Shown here: piece after piece, positions 62-10,440 of the stretch
Numbering within the stretch: position 1 is the stretch's first letter
Layout of the letters: every line of letters starts with the position of its first letter
Source of the DNA: Rubrivivax sp.
GTDB lineage: Bacteria > Pseudomonadota > Gammaproteobacteria > Burkholderiales > Burkholderiaceae_C
DNA: 64,000 nt
Direction: 5' to 3'
NCBI GenBank assembly: GCA_027487905.1
Contig: JAIYCR010000016.1
Span: 1 to 64,000, forward strand
Notes under the pieces: generated by a model
What the model saw: the letters and a program-made list of their open reading frames with translations, nothing else
The model's database searches: none
What the model was told of the DNA's origin: nothing
Made by a program: the position numbers and the translations under genes

Positions 62-2341
62 TCACTTGGGCGTCACCACCAACGACACCCGGAAGGTGCG
101 CGGCGCCATCGGGTAGAGGTAGCTGTGGCCGAACTGCACCGGCGATTCGCGCCAGGCCCGGCGGTCGGCCAGGTTGTCGATGCCGGCGCGCCAGGTGAGG
201 TCGGCCGCGGCGGTGGTGCGGTTCCACACCGCGGCGGCGTCCCAGCGGGCGCTGCCGCCGATGCGCAGGCTGTTGTCGGCCACGGCCGAGCGGCTGCTGT
301 CGGCGGACACGCCCAGCAGCGTCACCAGGCCGGGCACCGAGGCCACGGCCCAGCGGGCTTCGGCCTTGAGGCTGCGCTCGGGCACGTTGGGCGGCGGCAG
401 GCCGTTCAGCGTGGTGTCGCTGGCGCCCTGGCGTCGTGCCTGCAGCGCCTGCAGGCTGGCGGCCAGCGTGAGCGCGCCCAGGCGCTGGCTGCCGTCCACC
501 GCCAGGCCGCGATGGCGGGCCTCGCCGTCGCGGCTGCGGGTGCAGCTGCCGGGCGTGCTGTCGCAGGCACCGAAGTCGGTGAAGAGCGGGCGACGGATGT
601 CGAAGAGGGCCACGCCCCAGGACGCGGCGCTGGCCGAGGTGGCACTGCCCTCCCCCTTCAGGCCCAGCTCCCACTGCTGGCTGGGGCTCACCGGCAGGCC
701 CTGGCCGGCGTTGGTGTAGCGCGAGCGGCCGGGCACCACATCGGACTCCACGCCCTCGCCCCAGCTGGCGTAGGCGAGCAGCGTGGGTGAGATCTGCTGG
801 GTCAGGGCCAGCCAGGGCGTGGTGTAGCGCTGTTCGTACTGCGTGGGGCGGCTGCCGTCGGTGCGCACGCTGGCCCGGTCGAGCTGGGTGTGGCGCAGGC
901 CTAGCCAGGCCTGGGTGGCTGGGTTGAAGGCCACGCGGTGGCGCCAGTAGAGCTCGGTGCTGCGGTCGTCGCGCTGGGTGTTCTCGTCGGTGAGGGCCGG
1001 GTCGGCCGGGGTGACGACGGTTCCGGTGATGTCGCCCTCGCCCACGTAGTTGTAGGCCTGGCGGTTCAGGCGCTGGCGGTAGCTCGCGCGCAGCACGCCC
1101 AGCGTGGTGTCGTGGCGCAGGCTGCCGGTGCTGAAGCGGCCGTCCAGCGAGAAGTCCAGCGCGGTGCTGCGGCGGCGCTCGCCTTCGCTGCGGTAGTCGT
1201 AGAGGTCGAAGCGGCCATCGCTGCAGTAGCGGTCGAACACGTTCTCGGCGCTGCAGCCATAGGGGAAGGCCAGGCGGTCGTCGGTGCTGAGGTCCTGCAC
1301 GGCGGCATGGGCCTTGAAGCGCCAGTCGGCGCCCAGCGCCTGGGTGAAGCGCAGCGAGCCGGTGCTGCCCTCGAACACCACCGGCTGGCTCCAGGGCTGG
1401 TTGTTCAGGTTGATGCGCGGGTCGGCCGGGCCGGGCACGCGGCTGCCCAGCAGGCTGAAGCCGGGCACGCTGGGCTGGCTGCGCCGGCTCCACTCGCCTT
1501 CCAGCTCCAGCCGGGTGCCGGCGCTCGGCCGCCACTCGCCGGCCAGCGCGAGCAGGCCTCGCTCGCCCTGCGCAGATCGCGCCGGCGGGTCCAGCCGCTC
1601 GGCGGCGGCGTTGAGCCGCAGGCCGAAGGCGCCGCCCTCGCCGAAGCGGCGCGACAGGTCGGCCGCGGCCAGCACCGAGCCGGCGCTTTCCGCCTGCAGG
1701 GTGTACTGGCTCCTGTCCTCGGCCAGCGGGCGCTTGACGACCAGGTTCACCAGCCCGCCTGGCGCGGCGCTGCCGGCCTGGATGCCGGCCAGGCCCTTGA
1801 GCACTTCCAGCCGCTGCTTGTTGTCCAGCGGCAGCGCGGTCTCGCCGCTGATGGGCAGGCCGTCGCGCCGGAAGTTGCTGCGGTTGTCCAGAACGAAGCC
1901 GCGCACGGTGAGCGAATCCCAGTAGCCCGGGGCGTTGTAAGCATCGCCCAGCGAAGCGTCCACGCGGGTCAGGTCGGCGATGCGGTTCAGGCCGCGGTCG
2001 CGCAGGGCCGTCAAATCGACCACGGTGGCGGTGAGCGGCGTGCGCGCGAGCGGCTCGGGGCTGAAGCCGCCGACCTGCGGGCCGGGGGCGGCGGTGGCGG
2101 TGGCCTCGACGGTCACGCGGGGCAGTTGCCCGGAGGACGCGTTGGCCGTCTGGGCTTGGGCTTGGGCCAGGCCCTGAAGCCCGCCCAGCAACAGCGCCAC
2201 CGCAGCCGTGGTGGCGCTGGGCCGAAGCGGCCGGCGTGACAGCCGGCGGGCGGCCGCTCCACCGGGGCGCGAAGGCTCAGCAGCGAAAGACGAAGGAAGG
2301 GAAAGGTGGAGTCTGGAATGCAATGCCATCGAAGTGCTCAT
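62..2341 (-). CDS. TonB-dependent outer-membrane receptor, probably thiamine-regulated
   Basis: A 759-residue TonB-dependent receptor: an N-terminal export region with a hydrophobic stretch ending AQAQA near residue 63, a plug domain (about residues 75-205, with a typical TVRGF segment and PGGLVNLVVKRP), then a long beta-barrel ending in FRVSLVVTPK. Length and layout match siderophore-type receptors, which take up scarce ligands through the outer membrane using TonB energy. The TPP riboswitch just upstream on the same strand suggests the ligand is thiamine, a thiamine phosphate or a precursor, not iron; this is inference from regulation, not from the barrel sequence. The ATG used has no clear Shine-Dalgarno; a second in-frame ATG lies four codons later. 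Downstream the gene ends 61 bp from the window edge, so partner transport genes, if any, are not visible. Confidence 0.9.
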   Translation of the reverse strand: MSTSMALHSRLHLSLPSSFAAEPSRPGGAAARRLSRRPLRPSATTAAVALLLGGLQGLAQAQAQTANASSGQLPRVTVEATATAAPGPQVGGFSPEPLARTPLTATVVDLTALRDRGLNRIADLTRVDASLGDAYNAPGYWDSLTVRGFVLDNRSNFRRDGLPISGETALPLDNKQRLEVLKGLAGIQAGSAAPGGLVNLVVKRPLAEDRSQYTLQAESAGSVLAAADLSRRFGEGGAFGLRLNAAAERLDPPARSAQGERGLLALAGEWRPSAGTRLELEGEWSRRSQPSVPGFSLLGSRVPGPADPRINLNNQPWSQPVVFEGSTGSLRFTQALGADWRFKAHAAVQDLSTDDRLAFPYGCSAENVFDRYCSDGRFDLYDYRSEGERRRSTALDFSLDGRFSTGSLRHDTTLGVLRASYRQRLNRQAYNYVGEGDITGTVVTPADPALTDENTQRDDRSTELYWRHRVAFNPATQAWLGLRHTQLDRASVRTDGSRPTQYEQRYTTPWLALTQQISPTLLAYASWGEGVESDVVPGRSRYTNAGQGLPVSPSQQWELGLKGEGSATSASAASWGVALFDIRRPLFTDFGACDSTPGSCTRSRDGEARHRGLAVDGSQRLGALTLAASLQALQARRQGASDTTLNGLPPPNVPERSLKAEARWAVASVPGLVTLLGVSADSSRSAVADNSLRIGGSARWDAAAVWNRTTAAADLTWRAGIDNLADRRAWRESPVQFGHSYLYPMAPRTFRVSLVVTPK

Positions 2342-2355
2342 GGGCGATGGCAGGT

Positions 2356-2405
2356 GGGCGGCCGAACGCCCGTGGACGCAGGCAGCGAGACACGGCCTGC
2401 GGGCG
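2356..2405 (-). promoter_or_regulatory. Possible riboswitch expression platform (alternative hairpins)
   Basis: Between the TPP aptamer and the receptor start, the segment CGGGCG (2367-2372, minus strand) can pair either with upstream CGCCCG (2400-2405, extended internally by CAGGC/GCCTG) or with CGCCC at 2356-2360. The two pairings exclude each other, as expected of a switch between two folds. The second hairpin ends about 15 nt before the start codon. No U-tract follows, so translational control is more likely than termination. This is a by-eye fold only. Confidence 0.4.
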
Positions 2406-2506
2406 CTTCGGCTTGCTTCCCTGCGCGAGGATTACCTCAATCAGGTTCAAAGGGACTTTCTCAGTCGAGGCCACGGTTGCCCGGCACCTCAACACCCCCA
2501 GCGAAG
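2406..2506 (-). promoter_or_regulatory. TPP (THI-box) riboswitch aptamer
   Basis: Read on the minus strand the segment carries the hallmark TPP-aptamer elements in order: a GGGGGTG start, CTGAGA, a CCCTTTGAACCTGAT block, GGTAAT, and GCGCAGGGAAGC. The outer ends CTTCG (2502-2506) and CGAAG (2406-2410) can close the P1 stem. TPP aptamers sense thiamine pyrophosphate and usually turn off thiamine biosynthesis or transport genes. The next gene downstream on this strand is the TonB-dependent receptor, 64 nt away. Confidence 0.93.
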
Positions 2507-2555
2507 GTCGCGTGCGTGAAGCGCGCGACAGGCGGATTGTGACAGCGCAAAAGCA

Positions 2556-2630: not shown

Positions 2631-3740
2631 TCAGTCGAACACCGGCGTCTCCACCCCCAGCACCTTGTGCAGCTTGGGGCTGGTGGTGGTGTATTGCAGG
2701 TGGATGCGCTTGTCCGGGAAGACGAAGGGCGCCGCAGCGAAGGCGGCCAGCGCCGCCTCGTGGAAGCCCGAGAGGATGAGCTTCTTCTTGCCCGGATAGG
2801 TGTTGACGTCGCCCACGGCGAAGATGCCGGGCACGTTGGTCTCGAACTTCTCGGTGTCGACGACGATCTGCTTGCGCTCGAGCGCCAGGCCCCATTCGGC
2901 GATGGGGCCGAGCTTGGGGCTCAGGCCGAAGAAGACGAGCAGCATGTCCAGCGGCACCACGCGGGTGACGCCGTCGCCACCGGTCACCTTCACCGACTGC
3001 AGACGGCCATCGGCCGCGTCGAAGCCGGTGACCTGGCCGACCATGAACTGCATCTCGTAGGCCTCGCACAGCTCGCGCATCTTGGCCACGCTCGCCGGTG
3101 CGGCCTTGAAGCCGTCGCGACGGTGCACCAGGATGACCGACTCGGCCTTGTTCGGGCCTTCGCCTACGAAGTTCAGCGCCCAGTCGAGTGCCGAATCACC
3201 GCCGCCCACGATGACAAGGTTCTTGCCGGCGAACTGCTGAGGGTTCTTCACCCGGTAGTGCAGCTGCGTGCCGTCGAAGGCCTCCAGGCCATCCACCTTG
3301 AGCGTGCGCGGCTGGAAGCTGCCCACGCCGCCGGCGATGAAGATGGTCTTGCTGATGAAGCGCGTGCCCTTGCTGGTCTCGACGTCGAAGCGGCCGTCCT
3401 CGCGGCGGTTCACCAGCGTCACTTCCTGGCCCAGGTGGAAGGTGGCGCCGAAGGGCTCGATCTGCTTGAGCAGGTTGTCGGTGAGCTCCTTGCCGGTGCA
3501 CACCGGCACGGCCGGGATGTCGTAGATGGGCTTGTCGGGGTAGAGCTCGATGCACTGCCCGCCCGGGTAGGCGAGGGAATCGATGATGTGGGCCTTGATC
3601 TCGAGCAGGCCGAGCTCGAACACCTGGAACAGGCCCACCGGGCCGGCGCCGACGATGAGGGCGTCGGTCTCGATGGGTGCGCCCGAGGCGGCGGTGCCCT
3701 CGGCGGGGCGGGCGGTTTCAGCGCTGGCTTGCGGTTCCAT
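2631..3740 (-). CDS. Ferredoxin-NADP(+) reductase, thioredoxin-reductase-like type
   Basis: A 369-residue FAD/NAD(P)-binding protein. An N-terminal FAD-binding motif GAGPVGLF (around residue 31), a PGGQC segment, a second dinucleotide motif [10 protein letters not shown] and a C-terminal [11 protein letters not shown] segment match the YumC/Chlorobium class of ferredoxin reductases. That class resembles thioredoxin reductase but lacks its CxxC redox pair, and I see no CxxC here. It moves electrons between NADPH and ferredoxin in the cytoplasm. The first 20 or so residues are a low-complexity extension before the fold begins. It follows fdxA by 54 bp on the same strand, so the two are probably co-transcribed and functional partners. 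A terminator follows it. Confidence 0.9.
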
Positions 3741-3794: not shown

Positions 3795-4118
3795 TTACTT
3801 GATCAGTTCAGACAGCTTGCCGGTGCGGTCTTTCCAGTCGTCGGCGTCCGGCAGCGGCGCGTGGCGCTTGGTGATGCTGGGCCACTTCTTGGCGAGCTCG
3901 GCGTTCAGCTTGATCATGTGCTGCTGGTCGCCGGGCACATCTTCCTCGGGCACGATGGCATTCACCGGGCACTCGGGAATGCAGACCGCGCAGTCGATGC
4001 ACTCGTCCGGGTCGATGGTGAGGAAGTTCGGGCCCTCGCGGAAGCAGTCCACCGGACACACGTCGACGCAGTCGGTGTACTTGCAGCGGATGCAGGATTC
4101 GGTGACGACGTGGGTCAT
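3795..4118 (-). CDS. fdxA: 7Fe-8S ferredoxin FdxA
   Basis: A 107-residue ferredoxin with cysteines at 9, 12, 17, 21 and 25 and at 40, 43, 46 and 50, the spacing of Azotobacter FdI-type seven-iron ferredoxins (one 3Fe-4S and one 4Fe-4S cluster). The C-terminal helical tail (to KLSELIK) is also typical of the family. It is a soluble low-potential electron carrier. The next gene on the strand encodes a ferredoxin-NADP reductase, its likely partner; the preceding operon encodes sulfate assimilation and needs electrons for sulfite reductase. A TAGAAT hexamer on the minus strand at 4188-4193, overlapping the cobA stop, could be its own -10 element, though no good -35 was found. Confidence 0.95.
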
Positions 4119-4190
4119 GGAAATCGGCGCTTGGGGGGTGGACGACGCGCTGCCGTGGAGGCGGGCACGAGCGGCGGAAAACCCTTGATT

Positions 4191-4961
4191 CTAGGTGGTG
4201 AGGGGCTTGGAGCAGGCCTGCGGCTCGTCAAGGCCCTGCGGCAGGTCGCGCAGCGCAGCCGCCGCGGCAGACACGGGCAGCGCGCCCACGCCCACGGTGA
4301 CCACCGCCGGACGCCCGGCGTGCAGCACGCTGGCCCCGGCCAGGCTCGCCACCGTGTGGCGGCTGGCATGGGCGTCGGGCCAGCCGGCACGCGAGACGAC
4401 CTGCACCGGCGTGGCGTCGGGCCATCCGGCCTCCCGCAGGCGGCGGGCCAGCGCGCCAAGTTGGCGGCCGGCCATGTAGAACACCTCGGTGTCGGCGTGC
4501 GCCGCGGCGTTCAGCTCGTGCTCGCGCGACATGGCGGTGCTCAGGGCCACGCTGCGGCCACGGCCGCGCCGGGTCAGCGGGCGCCGGGTGTCCGCGGCAG
4601 CGGCCAGTGCGGCGGTGATGCCGGGCACCACCTCGCTGTCGATGCCCGCCGCGGCCAGGGCCTGGAGTTCCTCTTCCAGGCGGCCGAAGACGGACGGGTC
4701 GCCGCCTTTTAGGCGCACCACCACCGCGTGGCGGCGCGCCAGCGCCACCAGCAGGGCGTCGATGCGGGCCTGGGCGGTGCTGGCCTGGAAGCCGCGCTTG
4801 CCCACGTCGATCCAGCGGGCCTGGGGGGCGAAGCCGCGCAGCGCAGGGTCGGTCAGCGCATCGGCCAGCACCACCTCGGCCGTGGCCAGGCGCTGCGCGC
4901 CGCGCAGGGTGATGAGGTCGGCCGAGCCGGGGCCGGCGCCGATGAAGATCACGCGGCCCAT
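4191..4961 (-). CDS. cobA: Uroporphyrinogen-III C-methyltransferase (SUMT)
   Basis: A 256-residue SAM-dependent methyltransferase with the N-terminal GAGPGSADLITL motif, a VVRLKGGDPSVFGR motif and a VVPGITAA segment, all diagnostic of SUMT. It adds two methyl groups to uroporphyrinogen III to give precorrin-2, the first step to siroheme and cobalamin. It is the stand-alone form, without the dehydrogenase/chelatase half found in CysG. The start overlaps the end of cysN by 13 bp. As the last gene of the cysI-cysH-cysD-cysN run, it most likely supplies siroheme to the sulfite reductase CysI. The oxidase/ferrochelatase for the later steps is not in the window. Confidence 0.93.
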   Translation of the reverse strand: MGRVIFIGAGPGSADLITLRGAQRLATAEVVLADALTDPALRGFAPQARWIDVGKRGFQASTAQARIDALLVALARRHAVVVRLKGGDPSVFGRLEEELQALAAAGIDSEVVPGITAALAAAADTRRPLTRRGRGRSVALSTAMSREHELNAAAHADTEVFYMAGRQLGALARRLREAGWPDATPVQVVSRAGWPDAHASRHTVASLAGASVLHAGRPAVVTVGVGALPVSAAAAALRDLPQGLDEPQACSKPLTT

Positions 4962-6364
4962 GCGTCGTCCTCCGCCGCCGGGGCGGGCAGCGGGTCAGCC
5001 AGCAGTGCGGCGGCCGTGCGGTGGGTGGCGGCATCGACCAGCACCAGCGCACCGGCCACCGGGTTCTCGGCGAAACCGGTCAGCGGCAGCGCCTGCTGCA
5101 GCTGCACGCTCACCGAGCCGATGTCGTTGGCCTGAAGCGTCTGGGCGGCGGTGGTGGCCAGCGTGTGGATGTCCAGCCGGTGGTGGATGGCGGTGATGCG
5201 CGCCTGCGTCCAGCGGTTGCCGTGGCGGGCCCAGTAGCGCCGGCCGATGGCCGCGGGCTCGGTGTCCAGCCAGGCGGCGGTGGCGGTGAAGCGGTCGGCC
5301 TCGCGGGGGGCGGTACCGGCGGCACCGGCCGGGGCGGCAGCGTCGGCGGCCACCAGCCAATCGCCGCGCGACACGTCCAGTGGCCGGTCCAGCACCAGAC
5401 CGGCCGATTCGCCGAAGCCAGCGGCCGGCACCGGCACCCCGGCCCGGCGCACCTCCTGCACCAGGGCTTCGCCGCCGCCAGGCAGCACGCGGATGCGATC
5501 GCCCGCACGCACCGTTCCCTGGGCGATGCGGCCCCAGAACACGCGCTCGGGGTTGGCGCTGCCACCGGCTGAACCGACCTGCGCAGCCTCGGCGGCACCC
5601 TCCCCGCCGTGCCGCACGACGAGCTGCACCGGAATGCGCAGCGCACCCGCGGGCTCGGCTGCACCGGCCGGCAGCGACTCCAGCACCTGCAGCAGCGACG
5701 GGCCCTGCCACCATGCGGCCTCGAGCCGCGTGGCCACGTTGTCGCCGCGCAGCGCGGACACCGGCACGATGGCCGCCACCGCCAGGCCCGCCTCGGCCGC
5801 GAAGCGCTCGAGCGCCTCGCGCACCGCGGCGAAGGCCGAAGCCGGCTCGGCCAGCGCGTCGATCTTGTTGATGGCGAAGACGATGCTGCGCACCCGCAGC
5901 AGGTGGGCCAGCAGCGCATGCCGGCGCGTCTGCGGCAGCAGCTGCACCGGGCCGGCGCCGAACTGCAGCTTGGTCACGTCCACCAGCACCACCGCGGCGT
6001 CGCTGCCCGCGGCAGCGGTGACCATGTTGCGGGTGTACTGCTCGTGGCCCGGAGCGTCGGCGATGATGAACTTGCGCCGGCGGGTGGCGAAGTAGCGGTA
6101 GGCCACGTCAATGGTGATGCCCTGCTCGCGCTCGGCCTCCAGCCCGTCGGTGAGCAGCGACAGGTCGATGGGCGCGCCGGCCGCCCGGCGCTCCAGCGTG
6201 TCCAGCTGGTCGGCCAGGATGGCCTGGCAGTCCATCAGCAGGCGGCCGATGAGCGTGCTCTTGCCGTCGTCCACGCTGCCGGCGGTGAGAAAGCGCAGCG
6301 CCCGGTGGGTGGACGCGTCGGAGGCCGCGTTCGTTGCAGCGGGTGTGGGGCCGGGGTTGCTCAT
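4949..6364 (-). CDS. cysN: Sulfate adenylyltransferase subunit 1 (GTPase)
   Basis: A 471-residue translation-factor-like GTPase: P-loop GSVDDGKST, G3 region DAPGHEQYTRNM, G4 motif NKID, then beta-barrel domains. With CysD it forms ATP sulfurylase, which makes adenosine 5'-phosphosulfate from sulfate and ATP, driven by GTP hydrolysis. The start ATG at 6364 shares one base with the cysD stop (TGATG), which signals translational coupling and gives the usual family length; the reading frame is open further upstream, but there it overlaps cysD and encodes nothing recognisable. No APS kinase (CysC) domain is fused, in keeping with an APS-reductase route in which PAPS is not needed. Confidence 0.95.
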   Translation of the reverse strand: MSNPGPTPAATNAASDASTHRALRFLTAGSVDDGKSTLIGRLLMDCQAILADQLDTLERRAAGAPIDLSLLTDGLEAEREQGITIDVAYRYFATRRRKFIIADAPGHEQYTRNMVTAAAGSDAAVVLVDVTKLQFGAGPVQLLPQTRRHALLAHLLRVRSIVFAINKIDALAEPASAFAAVREALERFAAEAGLAVAAIVPVSALRGDNVATRLEAAWWQGPSLLQVLESLPAGAAEPAGALRIPVQLVVRHGGEGAAEAAQVGSAGGSANPERVFWGRIAQGTVRAGDRIRVLPGGGEALVQEVRRAGVPVPAAGFGESAGLVLDRPLDVSRGDWLVAADAAAPAGAAGTAPREADRFTATAAWLDTEPAAIGRRYWARHGNRWTQARITAIHHRLDIHTLATTAAQTLQANDIGSVSVQLQQALPLTGFAENPVAGALVLVDAATHRTAAALLADPLPAPAAEDDAWAA

Positions 6365-7323
6365 CAGAAGTAGCCTTCCTTCTTGCGCCGCTCCATCGAA
6401 GCGTCGTTGGCGCGGTCGTCCATGCGGGTGGCCCCGCGCTCGCTCACCGTCACCAGCAGGGTCTCGCGCACCACGTCCCAGGCGTCGGCGGCGTCGCTGG
6501 ACACCGGGCAGGTGCAGGTCATGTCGCCCACGGTGCGAAAGCGCACCTCCTCGCTCACCACCGCCTCGCCCGGCTCGGGCGGCGTCACCGCGGTCACCGG
6601 CACGAGCAGCCCGCGGCGGTGGATGACCGGCCGCTGGTGCGCGTAGTAGAGGCTGGGCAGCTCGATGCCCTCGCGGGCGATGTAGAGCCACACGTCCAGT
6701 TCGGTCCAGTTGCTGATGGGAAAGGCGCGCATGTGCTCGCCCGCCTGCAGCCGGGTGTTGAACAGCGTCCACAGCTCCGGACGCTGGCTCTTGGGCTGCC
6801 ACTGGCCGAAGCTGTCGCGGTGGCTGAACAGGCGCTCCTTGGCGCGGGCCTTCTCCTCGTCGCGGCGGGCGCCGCCCAGCAGCACGTCGAAGCGGTGCGC
6901 GTCGATGGCCTCCAGCAGCGCCACGCTCTGGTGGCCGTTGCGGCTCTCGCCGGCATGGGCCAGGCGCACGGTGCCGCGTGCGATGGAGTCCTCCACATGC
7001 CCCACCACCAGCCGGTCGCCGAGTTCGGCGATGCGGCGGTCGCGGAACTCGATGACTTCGGGAAAGTTGTGGCCGGTGTCCACGTGCAGCAGCGGGAAGG
7101 GCAGGCGGCCGCGCCAGCGGCCATCGGCCGAACGGGTCTTGAAGGCCTTCTGCGCCAGGTGCAGAAGCACGCAGGAGTCCTTGCCGGCGGAGAAGAGCAA
7201 CGCGGGCCGCTCGAAGGCGCCCACCGCCTCGCGCAGCAGGAAGAGGGCCTCCTCTTCCAGGCCGTCGAGGTGGGCATCGTCGATCTCGGGCCTCAGGCGG
7301 GCGAGCGGCACGGGGGCGTTCAT
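6364..7323 (-). CDS. cysD: Sulfate adenylyltransferase subunit 2
   Basis: A 319-residue catalytic subunit of ATP sulfurylase, of the PP-loop ATP pyrophosphatase family. The PP-loop reads SAGKDSCVLLHLA (near residues 45-57); HVDTGHNFPEVIEFRD and FPISNWTELDVW are further family signatures. It adenylates sulfate to APS together with CysN, whose start codon overlaps this gene's stop. A 70-bp gap separates it from the upstream cysH fusion gene; I see no strong terminator there, so one sulfate-assimilation transcript is likely. Confidence 0.95.
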   Translation of the reverse strand: MNAPVPLARLRPEIDDAHLDGLEEEALFLLREAVGAFERPALLFSAGKDSCVLLHLAQKAFKTRSADGRWRGRLPFPLLHVDTGHNFPEVIEFRDRRIAELGDRLVVGHVEDSIARGTVRLAHAGESRNGHQSVALLEAIDAHRFDVLLGGARRDEEKARAKERLFSHRDSFGQWQPKSQRPELWTLFNTRLQAGEHMRAFPISNWTELDVWLYIAREGIELPSLYYAHQRPVIHRRGLLVPVTAVTPPEPGEAVVSEEVRFRTVGDMTCTCPVSSDAADAWDVVRETLLVTVSERGATRMDDRANDASMERRKKEGYF

Positions 7324-7393
7324 GGGGGACGGCTTTCGAGGAAGGAAACCCAGGGCGGGGCAGGCGGGGGTGGGCGGGCGCGGCGCGGGCGTT

Positions 7394-8680
7394 TCAGGCC
7401 CCGGCCTTCACATGCAGCCCGCACTCCTTGGCCGCCTCCTCTTCCCACCACCAGCGGCCGGCGCGGAAGGGTTCGCCCACCGCGATGGCACGGGTGCAGG
7501 GCTCGCAGCCGATGCTGGGCATGAAGGCGTCGTGCAGCGGGTTGTAGGGCACGCCGTGCATCGACAGGTGGTGCCACACGTCGCCCCAGGTCCAGTCGGC
7601 CAGCGGGCTGTACTTGGTGCGGCCGGCGTCGTCGCGCTCCACCAGCGGCACGTCGCCGCGGCCATCGGACTGCTCGCGCCGCAGGCCGGTGACCCAGGCG
7701 CTGCGGCCGGCCAGCAGGCGCGACAGGGGCTCGAGCTTGCGCAGCGCGCAGCAGGCGCGGCGCAGCTCGACGCTGTCGCGCATGGCGTCCAGCCCATGGC
7801 GGCCCACCCACTGCTCGACGGCCTGCGCGTCCGGCTCGAAGCGCTCGATGCGCAGGCCCTGCCCGGCATAGTGGGCTTCGGCCCGGTCCAGCAGTTCCAG
7901 CGTCTGGCGGTGCAGGCGGCCGGTGACGAGCGTGCCCACGGCGATGGGAAGGCGGTGGCGGGCGATGAGGTCGAGCAGCACCATGTCCTCGGCGCCGAAG
8001 CTGGAGGCGAAGACGATGCCGGCGGGGTGGTCGGCCGCCGCCTGGCGCAGGCGCTGCACCGTGTCGGAGAGCAGGCGCTCGTGGCCGGGGCTGGGCCGCG
8101 CGTGCAGCGCGATGGCCTGGCCGGCCCGGATGGCCGGCAGCGGCTCGAGAGAAGACGAGGCGATGGGGGCCTTGACCGCGTGGGCGGCTTCGTCGCGCCG
8201 GAAACGCGGCAGCGGCTGCTGCACATCGCCCTGGTAGTGGCCGAGCTCGGCGAAGTGGCCGAGCACGCGCCGCGCATGGATGAGGCTCTGGTCACCCCGC
8301 AGCACCACCGCGTCCACCCCGCAGCGCACCAGCAGGGGCAGCATGTCCACCAGCACCTCGCCGCTGGCGCGGACTTCGCCCGCGAACCGGTAGCGGCGGC
8401 GCAGCAGCCGGGCGAGGCTGTAGCCCCGCCCGTCGACCCACTTGCCGAAGACCAGGCCAACACGCTGCACGCCGTCGAGCGACTGGCCCAGGGCCTCCAG
8501 GGCTTCGTCGGAGGTCTCGGGCGGCAGCAGCACCGAGGCCCCGCGGACCGGCCCGGCCGCACGCAGCGCGGCCAGTTCGTCCAACGTCAGCCAGGTCAGG
8601 CCCGCATGCTCGGACGCCTCGATGAATCGCGGCGGCGCAGCGGCAGCGGCGGTGGGGGAAGGCAGTTCGACGGCGTTCAT
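7394..8680 (-). CDS. cysH: DUF934-CysH fusion: assimilatory APS reductase with N-terminal DUF934
   Basis: A 428-residue two-domain protein. Residues about 20-165 match DUF934, a small domain normally encoded by its own gene beside cysI/cysH (seen: GKWVDGRGYSLARLLRRR and LLVRCGVDAVVLR). Residues about 195-425 are a CysH reductase: SSFGAEDMVLLD, TGRLHRQTLELLD, KYSPLADWTWGDVW, and a C-terminal ECGLH with the redox Cys420. Cysteines CC at 310-311 and CxxC at 392-395 are the 4Fe-4S ligands that mark reductases acting on APS directly. The reaction is reduction of APS to sulfite and AMP. The start overlaps the cysI stop by four bases (ATGA). The fused arrangement is unusual; a single uninterrupted frame across both domains supports a true fusion. 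The connecting linker is short, about 25 residues. Confidence 0.92.
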   Translation of the reverse strand: MNAVELPSPTAAAAAPPRFIEASEHAGLTWLTLDELAALRAAGPVRGASVLLPPETSDEALEALGQSLDGVQRVGLVFGKWVDGRGYSLARLLRRRYRFAGEVRASGEVLVDMLPLLVRCGVDAVVLRGDQSLIHARRVLGHFAELGHYQGDVQQPLPRFRRDEAAHAVKAPIASSSLEPLPAIRAGQAIALHARPSPGHERLLSDTVQRLRQAAADHPAGIVFASSFGAEDMVLLDLIARHRLPIAVGTLVTGRLHRQTLELLDRAEAHYAGQGLRIERFEPDAQAVEQWVGRHGLDAMRDSVELRRACCALRKLEPLSRLLAGRSAWVTGLRREQSDGRGDVPLVERDDAGRTKYSPLADWTWGDVWHHLSMHGVPYNPLHDAFMPSIGCEPCTRAIAVGEPFRAGRWWWEEEAAKECGLHVKAGA

Positions 8681-10440
8681 CGGGCGACAGGCTCAGGTTG
8701 CGGGCGTTGACCGCCGGTGGTGCGGCGCACCGCATCGGCCGCCTGGCGGAAGGGCAGCGGACCCAGGCGACGCACCGCGTCGATGAAGCGCTCGCCGGCC
8801 AGTCGCTGGGCGCGGTAGGCGTCGATGACGGCCTCCACCGCGTCGGGCAGTTCGTCGGCAGCGAAGGACGGGCCGATGACGGCGCCACCGCTCGCGCGTT
8901 CCAGGCCGCCGCCCAGGCTGCTGCCGTCGCTGCCGCCCACGGTGACCTGGTACCACTCCTGGCCGTCCTTGTCGACGCCGAGCACCCCCAGGTGGCCGCT
9001 GTGGTGGTGACCGCAGCTGTTGATGCAGCCGCTGATGTGAAGGTCGATCGGGCCGATGTCGTGCTGCTCGTCCAGGTCCTCGAAGCGCTCGGCCAGCTGC
9101 TGGGCGATGGGGATGGTGCGGGCATTGGCCAGCGCGCACAGGTCACCACCGGGGCAGGCGATCATGTCGGTCACCAGACCGATGTTCGGCGTGGCAAAGC
9201 CGCCCGCCCGCGCGGCCCGCCAGAGTTCGGGCAGGTCCTCGGCCTTCACCCAAGGCAGCACCAGGTTCTGCTCGTGCGTCACCCGCAGCTCGCCCAGCGA
9301 GAAGCGCTCGGCCAGGTCGGCCGCGCCGTCCAGCTGGGCGTCGGTGGCGTCTCCGGGCGGCAGGCCCGACCGCTTGAGCGACAGCGTCACCGCGCGCAAG
9401 GCCGGGTGACGGTGGGCGTGCACATTGCGTTCAACCCAGCGCGCATAGGCCGGTTCGTCGGCCAGCGTGGGCGTGGCCACCGGCGTGCGAGGCAGCGCTG
9501 ACACCGCAGCCGGCTCGACGAAGGCCGCGGACACGCGGGCCCGTTCCGCCTCGGTGAGGATCTGCGCATCGCCGTCCACGTCGCGGTCGAGGATCTGGCG
9601 GAACTCGGCATGGACGGCCTCGATGAAGCGCTCGCCTTCGGCCTTGACCAGGATCTTGATGCGCGCCTTGTAGGCGTTGTCGCGGCGGCCGAAGCGGTTG
9701 TAGACCCGCACCACCGCCTCCAGGAAGACGAGGATCTGCTGCCAGGGCACGAAGGCGGCCACCACGCGCGCGATGACCGGCGTGCGGCCCATGCCGCCGC
9801 CCACGCGCACCTCGAAGCCGACTTCGCCCGCCGCGTCCCGGTGCAGCCGCAGGCCGATGTCGTGCCAGGCGATGGCCGCGCGGTCTTCCTCGGCGCCGCT
9901 CACCGCGATCTTGAACTTGCGGGGCAGGAAGGCGAACTCGGGGTGCAGCGTGCTCCACTGGCGCAGCAGCTCGCAGTAGGGGCGCGGGTCGACGACTTCG
10001 TCGGGCGTCACGCCGGCGAAGGCGTCGCTGGTGATGTTGCGGATGCAGTTGCCGCTGGTCTGGATGCCGTGCAGGCCCACCTCGGCCAGCCGGTCCATGA
10101 CGTCGGCGCTGCGGTGCAGGGCGATCCAGTTGAACTGCAGGTTCTGCCGGGTGGTGAAGTGGCCGAAGCCGCCCTGGCCGGCAAACGGCCCGTCGGTGAC
10201 GCGGTCGAAGTCCCGGGCGATGGCCGCCAGCGTGCGCAGCTGGTCGACATGCAGCTCGCCATAGGGCACGGCCACCCGCAGCATGGGGGCGTGGCGCTGG
10301 ACGTACCAGCCGTTCTGCAGGCGAAGCGGGCGGAAGTCCTCGTCGGGCAGCTCGCCGGCCAGGTGGCGTTCGAGCTGGTCGCGATACTGGCGGGCGCGCT
10401 GGCGGACGAATTGGCGATCGAATTCGGAGATGACGGGCAT
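8677..10440 (-). CDS. cysI: Sulfite (nitrite/sulfite) reductase hemoprotein subunit
   Basis: A 587-residue siroheme and 4Fe-4S reductase. Two copies of the ferredoxin-like/sirohaem fold are visible; the cluster/siroheme cysteines are CPGGDLC and GCINSCGHH. GGFGHFTTRQNLQFNW and TSGNCIRNIT are classic family motifs. It reduces sulfite to sulfide with six electrons. It is the first gene of the sulfate-assimilation run, and its stop overlaps the cysH fusion start. No CysJ flavoprotein is encoded nearby, so electrons may come from ferredoxin. A nitrite reductase role cannot be excluded by sequence alone, but the neighbours make sulfite the likely substrate. Confidence 0.93.
   Translation of the reverse strand: MPVISEFDRQFVRQRARQYRDQLERHLAGELPDEDFRPLRLQNGWYVQRHAPMLRVAVPYGELHVDQLRTLAAIARDFDRVTDGPFAGQGGFGHFTTRQNLQFNWIALHRSADVMDRLAEVGLHGIQTSGNCIRNITSDAFAGVTPDEVVDPRPYCELLRQWSTLHPEFAFLPRKFKIAVSGAEEDRAAIAWHDIGLRLHRDAAGEVGFEVRVGGGMGRTPVIARVVAAFVPWQQILVFLEAVVRVYNRFGRRDNAYKARIKILVKAEGERFIEAVHAEFRQILDRDVDGDAQILTEAERARVSAAFVEPAAVSALPRTPVATPTLADEPAYARWVERNVHAHRHPALRAVTLSLKRSGLPPGDATDAQLDGAADLAERFSLGELRVTHEQNLVLPWVKAEDLPELWRAARAGGFATPNIGLVTDMIACPGGDLCALANARTIPIAQQLAERFEDLDEQHDIGPIDLHISGCINSCGHHHSGHLGVLGVDKDGQEWYQVTVGGSDGSSLGGGLERASGGAVIGPSFAADELPDAVEAVIDAYRAQRLAGERFIDAVRRLGPLPFRQAADAVRRTTGGQRPQPEPVAR

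What the first reader, a model, noticed from the sequence alone, without database searches (positions are those of the whole stretch)
62..2506. TPP riboswitch directly controlling a TonB-dependent outer-membrane receptor: candidate outer-membrane thiamine transporter
The aptamer elements (CTGAGA, CCCTTTGAACCTGAT, GGTAAT, GCGCAGGGA) are unambiguous on the minus strand, and the receptor is the only gene downstream within the window. The receptor itself looks like a siderophore-type protein, so automated annotation would call it an iron-siderophore receptor. Regulation by TPP argues for a thiamine-type ligand. TPP-regulated TonB receptors have been proposed by comparative genomics in other bacteria; a betaproteobacterial example would be worth testing.
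Basis: partly seen in the sequence, partly recalled or inferred. Interest (0 to 1): 0.62.

Follow-up and report, generated by a model that had tools for sequence, protein, structure and literature searches.

The report
TPP-riboswitch-controlled outer-membrane thiamine receptor
A bacterium that seems unable to make vitamin B1 carries a B1-sensing RNA switch in front of an outer-membrane pump that databases would call an iron pump; relatives show the pump travels with vitamin B1 genes, so it most likely imports vitamin B1, which extends a known kind of B1 importer rather than founding a new one.

Summary
Rfam's TPP model matches window 2509-2401 (-) at 55.3 bits (cut-off 54.3), the only TPP hit in the genome, upstream of a 755-759 aa TonB-dependent receptor. 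The window begins at a contig end, so nothing downstream can be read. Of 36 family genomes 20 carry the receptor; 19 of 19 testable have the riboswitch directly upstream. Of the 80 best relatives kept from 517, 69 have the riboswitch; the other 11, all Variovorax, have the receptor behind thiE. The genome lacks ThiC and ThiG; all 12 receptor genomes without ThiC also lack ThiG, so they seem to need intact thiamine. The receptor co-occurs with a PnuC-type permease (143 both, 135 neither, of 299), though few events are independent. A conserved hairpin hides the start codon; its 5' strand can instead pair with aptamer helix P4. Best reading: outer-membrane thiamine receptor of the OMthi/omr1 kind, from the siderophore-receptor lineage. 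A Variovorax example was predicted in 2023. Transport is untested. New here: breadth, the start-codon platform, the link to PnuC and a NadR-like kinase.

The parts
2401..2509 (-). TPP riboswitch aptamer (RF00059)
   Evidence: Rfam 55.3 bits, E 4.1e-08; only TPP match in the genome
2417..2426 (-). 3' strand of aptamer helix P4 (GCGCAGGGAA); proposed switching partner of the platform
   Evidence: Rfam alignment; complementarity to the platform CCTGC, folding
2345..2356 (-). platform 5' strand CACCTGCCATCG: can pair with the P4 strand (proposed ON) or with the start-codon region (proposed OFF)
   Evidence: recurs in relatives' leaders; folding
2324..2331 (-). platform 3' strand CGATGGCA holding the likely start codon ATG (2329-2327)
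   Evidence: 8-bp hairpin with 2352-2345; CCTG-anchored 6-bp form in 53 and 5-bp form in 66 of 84 leaders, against 1.2 and 1.8 expected from random positions in the same leaders
62..2329 (-). TonB-dependent outer-membrane receptor, proposed thiamine receptor (755 aa from the second Met; 759 aa if the first ATG at 2341 is used)
   Evidence: Plug domain; TIGR01783; orthologues with riboswitch or behind thiE; AlphaFold plug-and-barrel model, pTM 0.77
2631..3740 (-). upstream neighbour, flavin/pyridine-nucleotide oxidoreductase; shared synteny, not thought part of the system
   Evidence: Pfam Pyr_redox_2; cluster c1 has 13 members, own included, in the 22 loci compared

Best explanation
The gene encodes a TonB-dependent outer-membrane receptor that imports intact thiamine (or a phosphate ester of it) in a bacterium that appears unable to make thiamine. 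When TPP is scarce, the aptamer's P4 3' strand (GCAGG) pairs with the leader's CCTGC, the start codon stays open, and the receptor is translated. When TPP is plentiful the aptamer folds, P4 forms internally, and the freed CCTGCCATCG strand pairs with CGATGGCA over the start codon, shutting translation. Thiamine reaching the periplasm is then probably carried inward by the PnuC/PnuT-type permease encoded elsewhere and trapped by phosphorylation, perhaps by the NadR-like kinase next to it. Shown by computation: the riboswitch and its conservation, the hairpin, the absence of ThiC and ThiG matches, the co-occurrence. Inferred: ligand, transport, direction of the switch, roles of permease and kinase.
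For: Riboswitch directly upstream in 19 of 19 testable receptors of the 20 found in 36 family genomes (six of the 19 score below Rfam's cut-off, one of them cut by a contig end). 69 of the 80 relatives kept have it; the other 11, all Variovorax, have a ThiE-type end 36-129 bases before the receptor match (motif by script), with ThiO-type DAO, ThiG and TMP-TENI confirmed by Pfam in one of the 11. No ThiC or ThiG in the window genome; all 12 receptor-bearing genomes without ThiC lack ThiG, whereas receptor-less G002 and G030 lack only ThiC and have a riboswitch-led CytX-like gene. Receptor and PnuC family: 143 both, 6 receptor only, 15 PnuC only, 135 neither, of 299. The one receptor genome among the 36 without PnuC, G032, has a riboswitch-led ABC set with a ThiB-family binding protein. 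In G009 thiC and the receptor are divergent, each with its own riboswitch. Start-codon hairpin: 5-bp form in 66 of 84 leaders, 1.8 expected; CCAC goes with GTG starts and TCAT with ATGA, 3 of 3 each.
Against: No ligand or transport data. Profiles and folds place the receptor nearest siderophore receptors (FemA, BauA, FhuA). On the species tree PnuC follows the receptor in 4, opposes in 0 and does not differ in 2 of 6 well-supported independent pairs, p 0.125; loss of ThiG against receptor is weaker still (median p 0.25), so phylogeny-corrected support is weak. Eight of 20 receptor genomes have ThiC and ThiG; G018, lacking both, has no receptor. The proposed ON pairing is 5.2 kcal/mol less stable than the OFF fold in the window leader, so it would have to be kinetic. 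18 of 84 leaders lack the 5-bp hairpin by my rule, and leaders are kin, not independent. PnuC here passes the nicotinamide riboside transporter model.
Confidence: 0.83

Rival explanations
1. The receptor imports a thiamine precursor (HMP, aminopyrimidine or thiazole) rather than intact thiamine.
For: TPP riboswitches also lead precursor-type transporters (CytX-like gene in G030 by profile, below its cut-off, and in G002, G017, G019, G024 by clustering). Eight of 20 receptor genomes keep ThiC and ThiG, and in Variovorax the receptor sits behind thiE.
Against: 12 of 12 receptor genomes lacking ThiC also lack ThiG, so HMP or thiazole alone would not serve; G002 and G030, which lack only ThiC, have no receptor. 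The partner permeases are of PnuC type, or a ThiB-family ABC set in G032.
Confidence: 0.08
2. It is an iron-siderophore receptor that acquired a TPP riboswitch, tying iron uptake to thiamine status (ThiC is an Fe-S enzyme; recalled).
For: NCBIfam TIGR01783 just over cut-off; nearest solved structures are siderophore receptors.
Against: The link persists in genomes without ThiC and ThiG, where that logic fails. Riboswitch-led and thi-operon receptors form one clade apart from seven paralogues without a TPP match beside them. No gene downstream of the receptor is shared among the loci compared (those genes were clustered, not annotated).
Confidence: 0.06
3. PnuC and the NadR-like kinase serve nicotinamide riboside salvage, and their co-occurrence with the receptor is an accident of shared ancestry; the receptor works with some other inner-membrane transporter. 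(This rival leaves the receptor's own role untouched.)
For: PnuC passes TIGR01528 nicotinamide riboside transporter, and the kinase is nearest NadR. Neither is riboswitch-led in the window genome. The phylogeny-corrected test is not significant.
Against: On the tree of 33 family genomes the receptor changes at least 8 and PnuC at least 6 times, yet they agree in 31 of 33. In G052 PnuC and kinase sit beside the riboswitch-led receptor; in G042 the receptor is followed by an APH-type kinase and PnuC.
Confidence: 0.3

Closest known systems
OMthi (BT2390) of Bacteroides thetaiotaomicron with PnuT-Tnr3
   Same: TPP-riboswitch-led TonB-dependent receptor used together with PnuT; loss together with biosynthesis raises the thiamine needed, though single deletions had no effect and transcripts changed little with thiamine (PMC5613172, passages seen)
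   Different: Different phylum; here the receptor passes the siderophore-receptor model TIGR01783, stands as a single gene, and the kinase by PnuC is NadR-like (AAA_28), not Tnr3. Direct sequence comparison with BT2390 was not made.
Variovorax thi-operon TonB receptor (PMC10409787, passages seen)
   Same: The 11 Variovorax loci found here carry the receptor right behind thiE, so it is probably the same gene
   Different: In the window and in 69 of 80 relatives the receptor has its own riboswitch; the window genome lacks ThiC and ThiG, the published Variovorax is a producer
omr1 / predicted thiamin TonB-dependent transporters of Rodionov 2002 (recalled, not read; cited in PMC2771747, passages seen)
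   Same: Assignment by TPP element and PnuT neighbourhood; the 2009 survey places such proteins in several separate receptor clusters, one in a region with siderophore receptors, and calls them unproven
   Different: Those members were not compared with this one here
E. coli thiC riboswitch platform (PMC5234074, passages seen)
   Same: TPP-bound state hides ribosome site and start codon; an alternative long-range pairing in the free state
   Different: There the ON pairing is anti-P1; here the proposed partner is the P4 3' strand, and the conserved hairpin centres on the start codon

Membership tests
TPP riboswitch (RF00059) | covariance-model score at or above gathering | tested here: met
   55.3 against 54.3 bits, full length
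TPP riboswitch (RF00059) | conserved in homologous leaders | tested here: met
   19 of 19 testable in the family, 69 of 80 relatives kept
TPP riboswitch (RF00059) | binds TPP and regulates | not testable with these tools
   needs binding and reporter assays
TonB-dependent receptor | plug domain and beta barrel | tested here: met
   Pfam Plug; AlphaFold model pTM 0.77, pLDDT 76.5, nearest FemA/BauA/FhuA, TMq 0.74-0.76; no Pfam barrel family reported at 0.001
OMthi/omr1 thiamine receptor | TPP-element control or thi-gene linkage | tested here: met
   69 of 80 relatives with riboswitch, 11 of 80 behind a ThiE-type end (Pfam check in one); 437 further relatives were not kept
OMthi/omr1 thiamine receptor | association with a thiamine inner-membrane transporter | tested here: inconclusive
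   strong raw co-occurrence with the PnuC family, adjacency in G052 and G042, but substrate of that PnuC unproven and tree-based test p 0.125
OMthi/omr1 thiamine receptor | transports thiamine | not testable with these tools
   needs uptake and binding assays
Iron-siderophore receptor (TIGR01783) | profile score over cut-off | tested here: met
   227.5 against 223.5 bits; the model's reach over ligands was not tested
Iron-siderophore receptor (TIGR01783) | siderophore genes or iron control nearby | tested here: inconclusive
   no downstream gene shared among loci, but downstream genes were not annotated and Fur sites were not searched
PnuT thiamine permease (G000:C114) | PnuC-superfamily match | tested here: met
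   PF04973 E 4.3e-52
PnuT thiamine permease (G000:C114) | thiamine rather than nicotinamide riboside as substrate | tested here: inconclusive
   NCBIfam calls it PnuC; genomic context suggests thiamine

The most novel reading that the evidence does not exclude
The receptor is the outer-membrane end of an unrecognised betaproteobacterial thiamine route whose inner-membrane carrier is an enolase-linked PnuC homologue and whose trapping enzyme is a further kind of thiamine kinase, an AAA_28 protein related to NadR's ribosylnicotinamide kinase domain; the three are classed by today's models as iron or NAD proteins.
Probability: 0.4. Interest if true: 0.62.

Novelty: new member of a known kind. Interest (0 to 1): 0.47.

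Why it matters
About half of the sampled family (149 of 299 genomes) carries a receptor that profile-based annotation files under siderophore uptake but that most likely brings in vitamin B1; of the 13 genomes among 36 that lack both ThiC and ThiG, 12 have it. This would correct annotation in genera such as Variovorax, Rubrivivax, Roseateles and in Piscinibacter sakaiensis 201-F6, offer a marker for thiamine dependence in communities, and give a testable assignment to a PnuC homologue and a NadR-like kinase.

Tried and rejected
Downstream operon partner: the window starts at a contig end, and no downstream cluster is shared among most relatives compared, so the search for a co-transcribed transporter was dropped. 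A Thiamine_BP (PF01910) partner: matched in 2 of 60 genomes, not in the window's. ThiB as the usual partner: 2 of 60 genomes pass the TIGR01254 cut-off, while 47 of 60 have weaker matches at E 0.001 that were not followed. Siderophore receptor: kept as a rival. Genes beside G012's second riboswitch look like an ABC transporter on the other strand and were set aside (judged by eye). Ligand prediction from structure was not attempted: the model is of moderate confidence and holds no ligand.

Rows dropped before counts. ThiG: the tool counts 29 of 36 genomes with a match at E 0.001 and 26 over the cut-off; I counted only matches above 300 bits (23 genomes). The set-aside matches in genomes that I call ThiG-less are G012, G020, G022, G026, G032, G035, 19-28 bits, three of them (G022, G026, G035) over the 23-bit cut-off with their neighbours. 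G001 (81% complete) and G010 (89%) may lack genes through incompleteness; G009's ThiC is a fragment at a contig end, counted as present. Receptor: G019's 28% match and the order-level matches of 28-36% (G042, G044, G052, G056) were not counted as orthologues. In the 299-genome table G001 counts as PnuC-only because its receptor is a fragment; 6 of the 15 PnuC-only genomes are under 90% complete. Of the six receptor-only genomes only G032 was examined. Leaders: 3 of 84 had no anchor, 18 of 81 were left out of the covariation tables, and in at least three (L279, L284, G014) the anchor rule picked a site inside the gene, judged by eye. The shuffles also scramble anchor and start codon and are lenient; one search gives the fairer expectation. 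The three TCAT leaders may be one event. The species tree leaves out G001, G009 and G020; the receptor tree holds 17 of the 20 family receptors, without G001, G007 and G032.

Literature: seven searches listed no paper that I recognised as describing the riboswitch-led receptor outside the thi operon in this order, the start-codon platform, or a NadR-like thiamine kinase; I opened passages of six papers only, and subscription journals are mostly not held, so this is weak. Rodionov 2002 was not read.
Full report
What is there. The window is the start of contig C30 of an unnamed 4.35 Mb, 115-contig genome, 98.5% complete. On the minus strand, 2509-2401 is a TPP riboswitch (RF00059, 55.3 bits, cut-off 54.3, E 4.1e-08), the only one found in the genome. 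It is followed by a TonB-dependent receptor ORF, 62-2341, with a Plug domain and a bare pass of the NCBIfam siderophore-receptor model TIGR01783 (227.5 against 223.5 bits). The AlphaFold model is a plug-and-barrel receptor (pLDDT 76.5, pTM 0.77), nearest in fold to FemA, BauA, FoxA and FhuA; the alignment profile's nearest solved sequences are FemA, BauA and FhuA.

Relatives by genome search. The relatives set is 60 genomes: own, 35 of the same family, 24 of the order. The receptor search gave a match at E 1e-40 in 25 of 60; five of these are matches of 28-36% identity that I do not count as orthologues (G019, G042, G044, G052, G056). So 20 of 36 family genomes, own included, carry the orthologue (44-56% identity to the window's). 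Coordinates put a TPP riboswitch directly upstream, on the same strand, in 18 of them; in G020 the riboswitch is cut by the contig end (38.9 bits); in G001 the 5' part of the gene is off the contig. That is 19 of 19 testable. Six score under Rfam's cut-off (G010, G014, G020, G021, G029, G035); long insertions are visible in G014, G029 and G035.

Relatives in the named-genome collection. A pattern scan gave 517 relatives, of which the best 80 were kept. Titles include Rhizobacter, Piscinibacter sakaiensis, Methylibium, Rubrivivax, Roseateles, Paucibacter, Variovorax, Aquabacterium, Caldimonas and Ramlibacter, one MAG labelled Vitreoscilla, and many MAGs without a genus. A covariance model built from 14 of the family riboswitches matched upstream in 69 of 80 loci, weakest E 1.7e-15; L285 has a second, divergent one. 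The 11 without are all titled Variovorax and gave no TPP match with Rfam either; two Variovorax-titled MAGs (L292, L301) do have it. In each of the 11 a ThiE-type C-terminus, recognised by motif, ends 36 to 129 bases before the start of the receptor match. In V. paradoxus NBRC 15149 Pfam confirms the order ThiO-type oxidase, ThiG, ThiE, receptor (DAO, ThiG, TMP-TENI; a ThiS-like stretch lies between, read by eye). So each of the 80 is tied to TPP control or to thiE.

Thiamine biosynthesis. No ThiC match was found in the window genome, while the same search rings in 13 of 14 control genomes. No ThiG match either (controls ring in 14 of 14, 13 over the cut-off). Among the 36 family genomes ThiC is missing in 15 and ThiG in 13, counting only matches above 300 bits as real; weaker fragments of 19-28 bits exist in six of the 13. 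All 12 receptor-bearing genomes that lack ThiC also lack ThiG. Of the three ThiC-less genomes without the receptor, G002 and G030 keep ThiG and have a riboswitch-led CytX-like gene (the G030 protein scores 209.7 bits with the CytX model, cut-off 309.9), and G018 lacks both enzymes and has no riboswitch match. Lack of both enzymes against receptor presence: 12 and 1 against 8 and 15, Fisher p 0.0013, not corrected for kinship; the tree-based version is not significant (median p 0.25). Two of the 12 are under 90% complete (G001, G010). The pattern favours intact thiamine as cargo.

Partner permease. PF04973 (PnuC family) is present in 20 of the 36 family genomes, 19 of them with the receptor. 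In 299 family genomes, own included and drawn evenly from a larger group: both 143, receptor only 6, PnuC only 15, neither 135 (raw Fisher 8.5e-59). Six of the 15 PnuC-only genomes are under 90% complete, one of them (G001) with a receptor fragment. The receptor-only genome G032 has a riboswitch-led ABC set: the binding protein passes the ThiB-family model TIGR01254 (317 against 93.4 bits) but not the stricter ThiB model, and permease and ATPase pass no ThiP or ThiQ cut-off. The other five receptor-only genomes were not examined. On a tree of 33 family genomes from enolase, PyrG and KdsA the receptor changes at least 8 times and PnuC at least 6; in six well-supported independent pairs PnuC follows the receptor in 4, opposes in none and does not differ in 2, p 0.125. 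So the association is striking but the independent events are few.

In most of these genomes the PnuC gene lies by ftsB-like and enolase genes (named by eye from the translations) and is followed by an AAA_28 kinase (Pfam for the G000, G008 and G052 proteins): a P-loop ORF was found by pattern in 18 of 20 family loci, own included, and by clustering in one more, G031; none was found in G022. The kinase's nearest named families and structures are NadR proteins. In the more distant G052 the PnuC-kinase pair sits just upstream of a riboswitch-led receptor; in G042 the receptor is followed by an APH-type kinase and PnuC, with no TPP match in the stretch. The plain NAD-salvage reading of PnuC and kinase is not excluded.

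How the switch may work. Between aptamer and gene, most leaders carry GCC(G/C)ACCTGCCATCG, a short loop and CGATGGCA, the ATG of the last being the likely start codon. A CCTG- or CTTG-anchored pairing with a start codon is present as 5 bp in 66 and as 6 bp in 53 of 84 leaders, all distinct. Mononucleotide shuffles gave at most 1; random positions in the real leaders give 1.8 and 1.2 expected. Neither control corrects for kinship. Departures co-vary: CCAC goes with GTG starts in 3 of 3 and TCAT with ATGA in 3 of 3; by my first-start rule the two tables (56, 4, 0, 3 and 49, 4, 0, 3) give p 0.0009 and 0.0013; they count sequences, not events. In the window leader the fold with P4 and the hairpin is the minimum (-85.3 kcal/mol) and leaves the start codon at most 1% open; forcing CCTGC onto the P4 strand costs 5.2 kcal/mol and raises openness to 0.48, 0.46 and 0.10 for A, U and G. 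Most of the ThiC leaders printed show ordinary ribosome sites instead (by eye), while the CytX-like and Thiamine_BP leaders there share the receptor's aptamer ending and some the platform. The start at 2329 rather than 2341 follows from this and from the M-A beginnings of most relatives.

Placement. In a tree of 29 receptors, 20 family rows (17 riboswitch-led and 3 Variovorax) form one clade with 100% SH-aLRT; G042 and G052 come next (91%), and seven paralogues of 28-32% identity without a TPP match beside them lie apart, the root being set on them (quick method, no bootstrap, G052 a long branch).

Comparison with what is known. TPP-riboswitch-led outer-membrane thiamine receptors are known from Bacteroides, where deleting OMthi in a biosynthesis mutant raised the EC50 for thiamine from 2.8 to 15.8 nM (PMC5613172, passages). 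A 2009 survey lists predicted thiamin receptors in several receptor clusters, with PnuT nearby, as unproven (PMC2771747, passages). A 2025 metatranscriptome paper uses omr1 as a thiamin uptake gene of unclear specificity (PMC12442306, passages). [quoted passage not shown] Hiding of the start codon by a TPP riboswitch is known for E. coli thiC (PMC5234074, passages); a 2026 covariation study of TPP platforms deals with terminator-type ones (PMC13273304, passages). The finding is therefore a well-supported new member of a known kind, with a distinctive platform and a possible new salvage partner.

Noticed in passing
L091 (G012:C2:70970-71200) and L118 (G022:C11:357214-357453): A TPP riboswitch precedes a small protein of the Thiamine_BP family (PF01910) with a signal-peptide-like start (judged by eye); matched in only 2 of 60 genomes, both lacking ThiC and carrying the receptor.
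   Followed up: partly
L083, L095, L103, L106 (G003, G015, G019, G023): TPP riboswitch leading a LuxE-like gene and, in three of the four, a LuxC-like acyl reductase gene, then ABC-transporter genes with an NMT1/THI5-like binding protein (Pfam on the G003 proteins, clustering for the rest): an odd pairing.
   Followed up: partly
L044 731-995; L104; L285 3606-3864: Back-to-back TPP riboswitches: in L044 serving thiC and the receptor; in L104 a sodium/solute-symporter-like gene and a short-chain-dehydrogenase-like gene (the latter by eye); L285 also shows a divergent pair.
   Followed up: partly
L044 3396-3468, L047 601-673, L078 9885-9957 and Variovorax loci: A tRNA gene lies just downstream of the receptor, also in 9 of 11 Variovorax loci at 68 bits where the upstream context is the thi operon.
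   Followed up: no
G105:C1:1565615-1569865: Two receptor copies in tandem, each 42% identical to the window's.
   Followed up: no
window 3795-10440 (-): Ferredoxin-like, CysG-like and sulfate-assimilation-like ORFs upstream of the receptor (read by eye).
   Followed up: no
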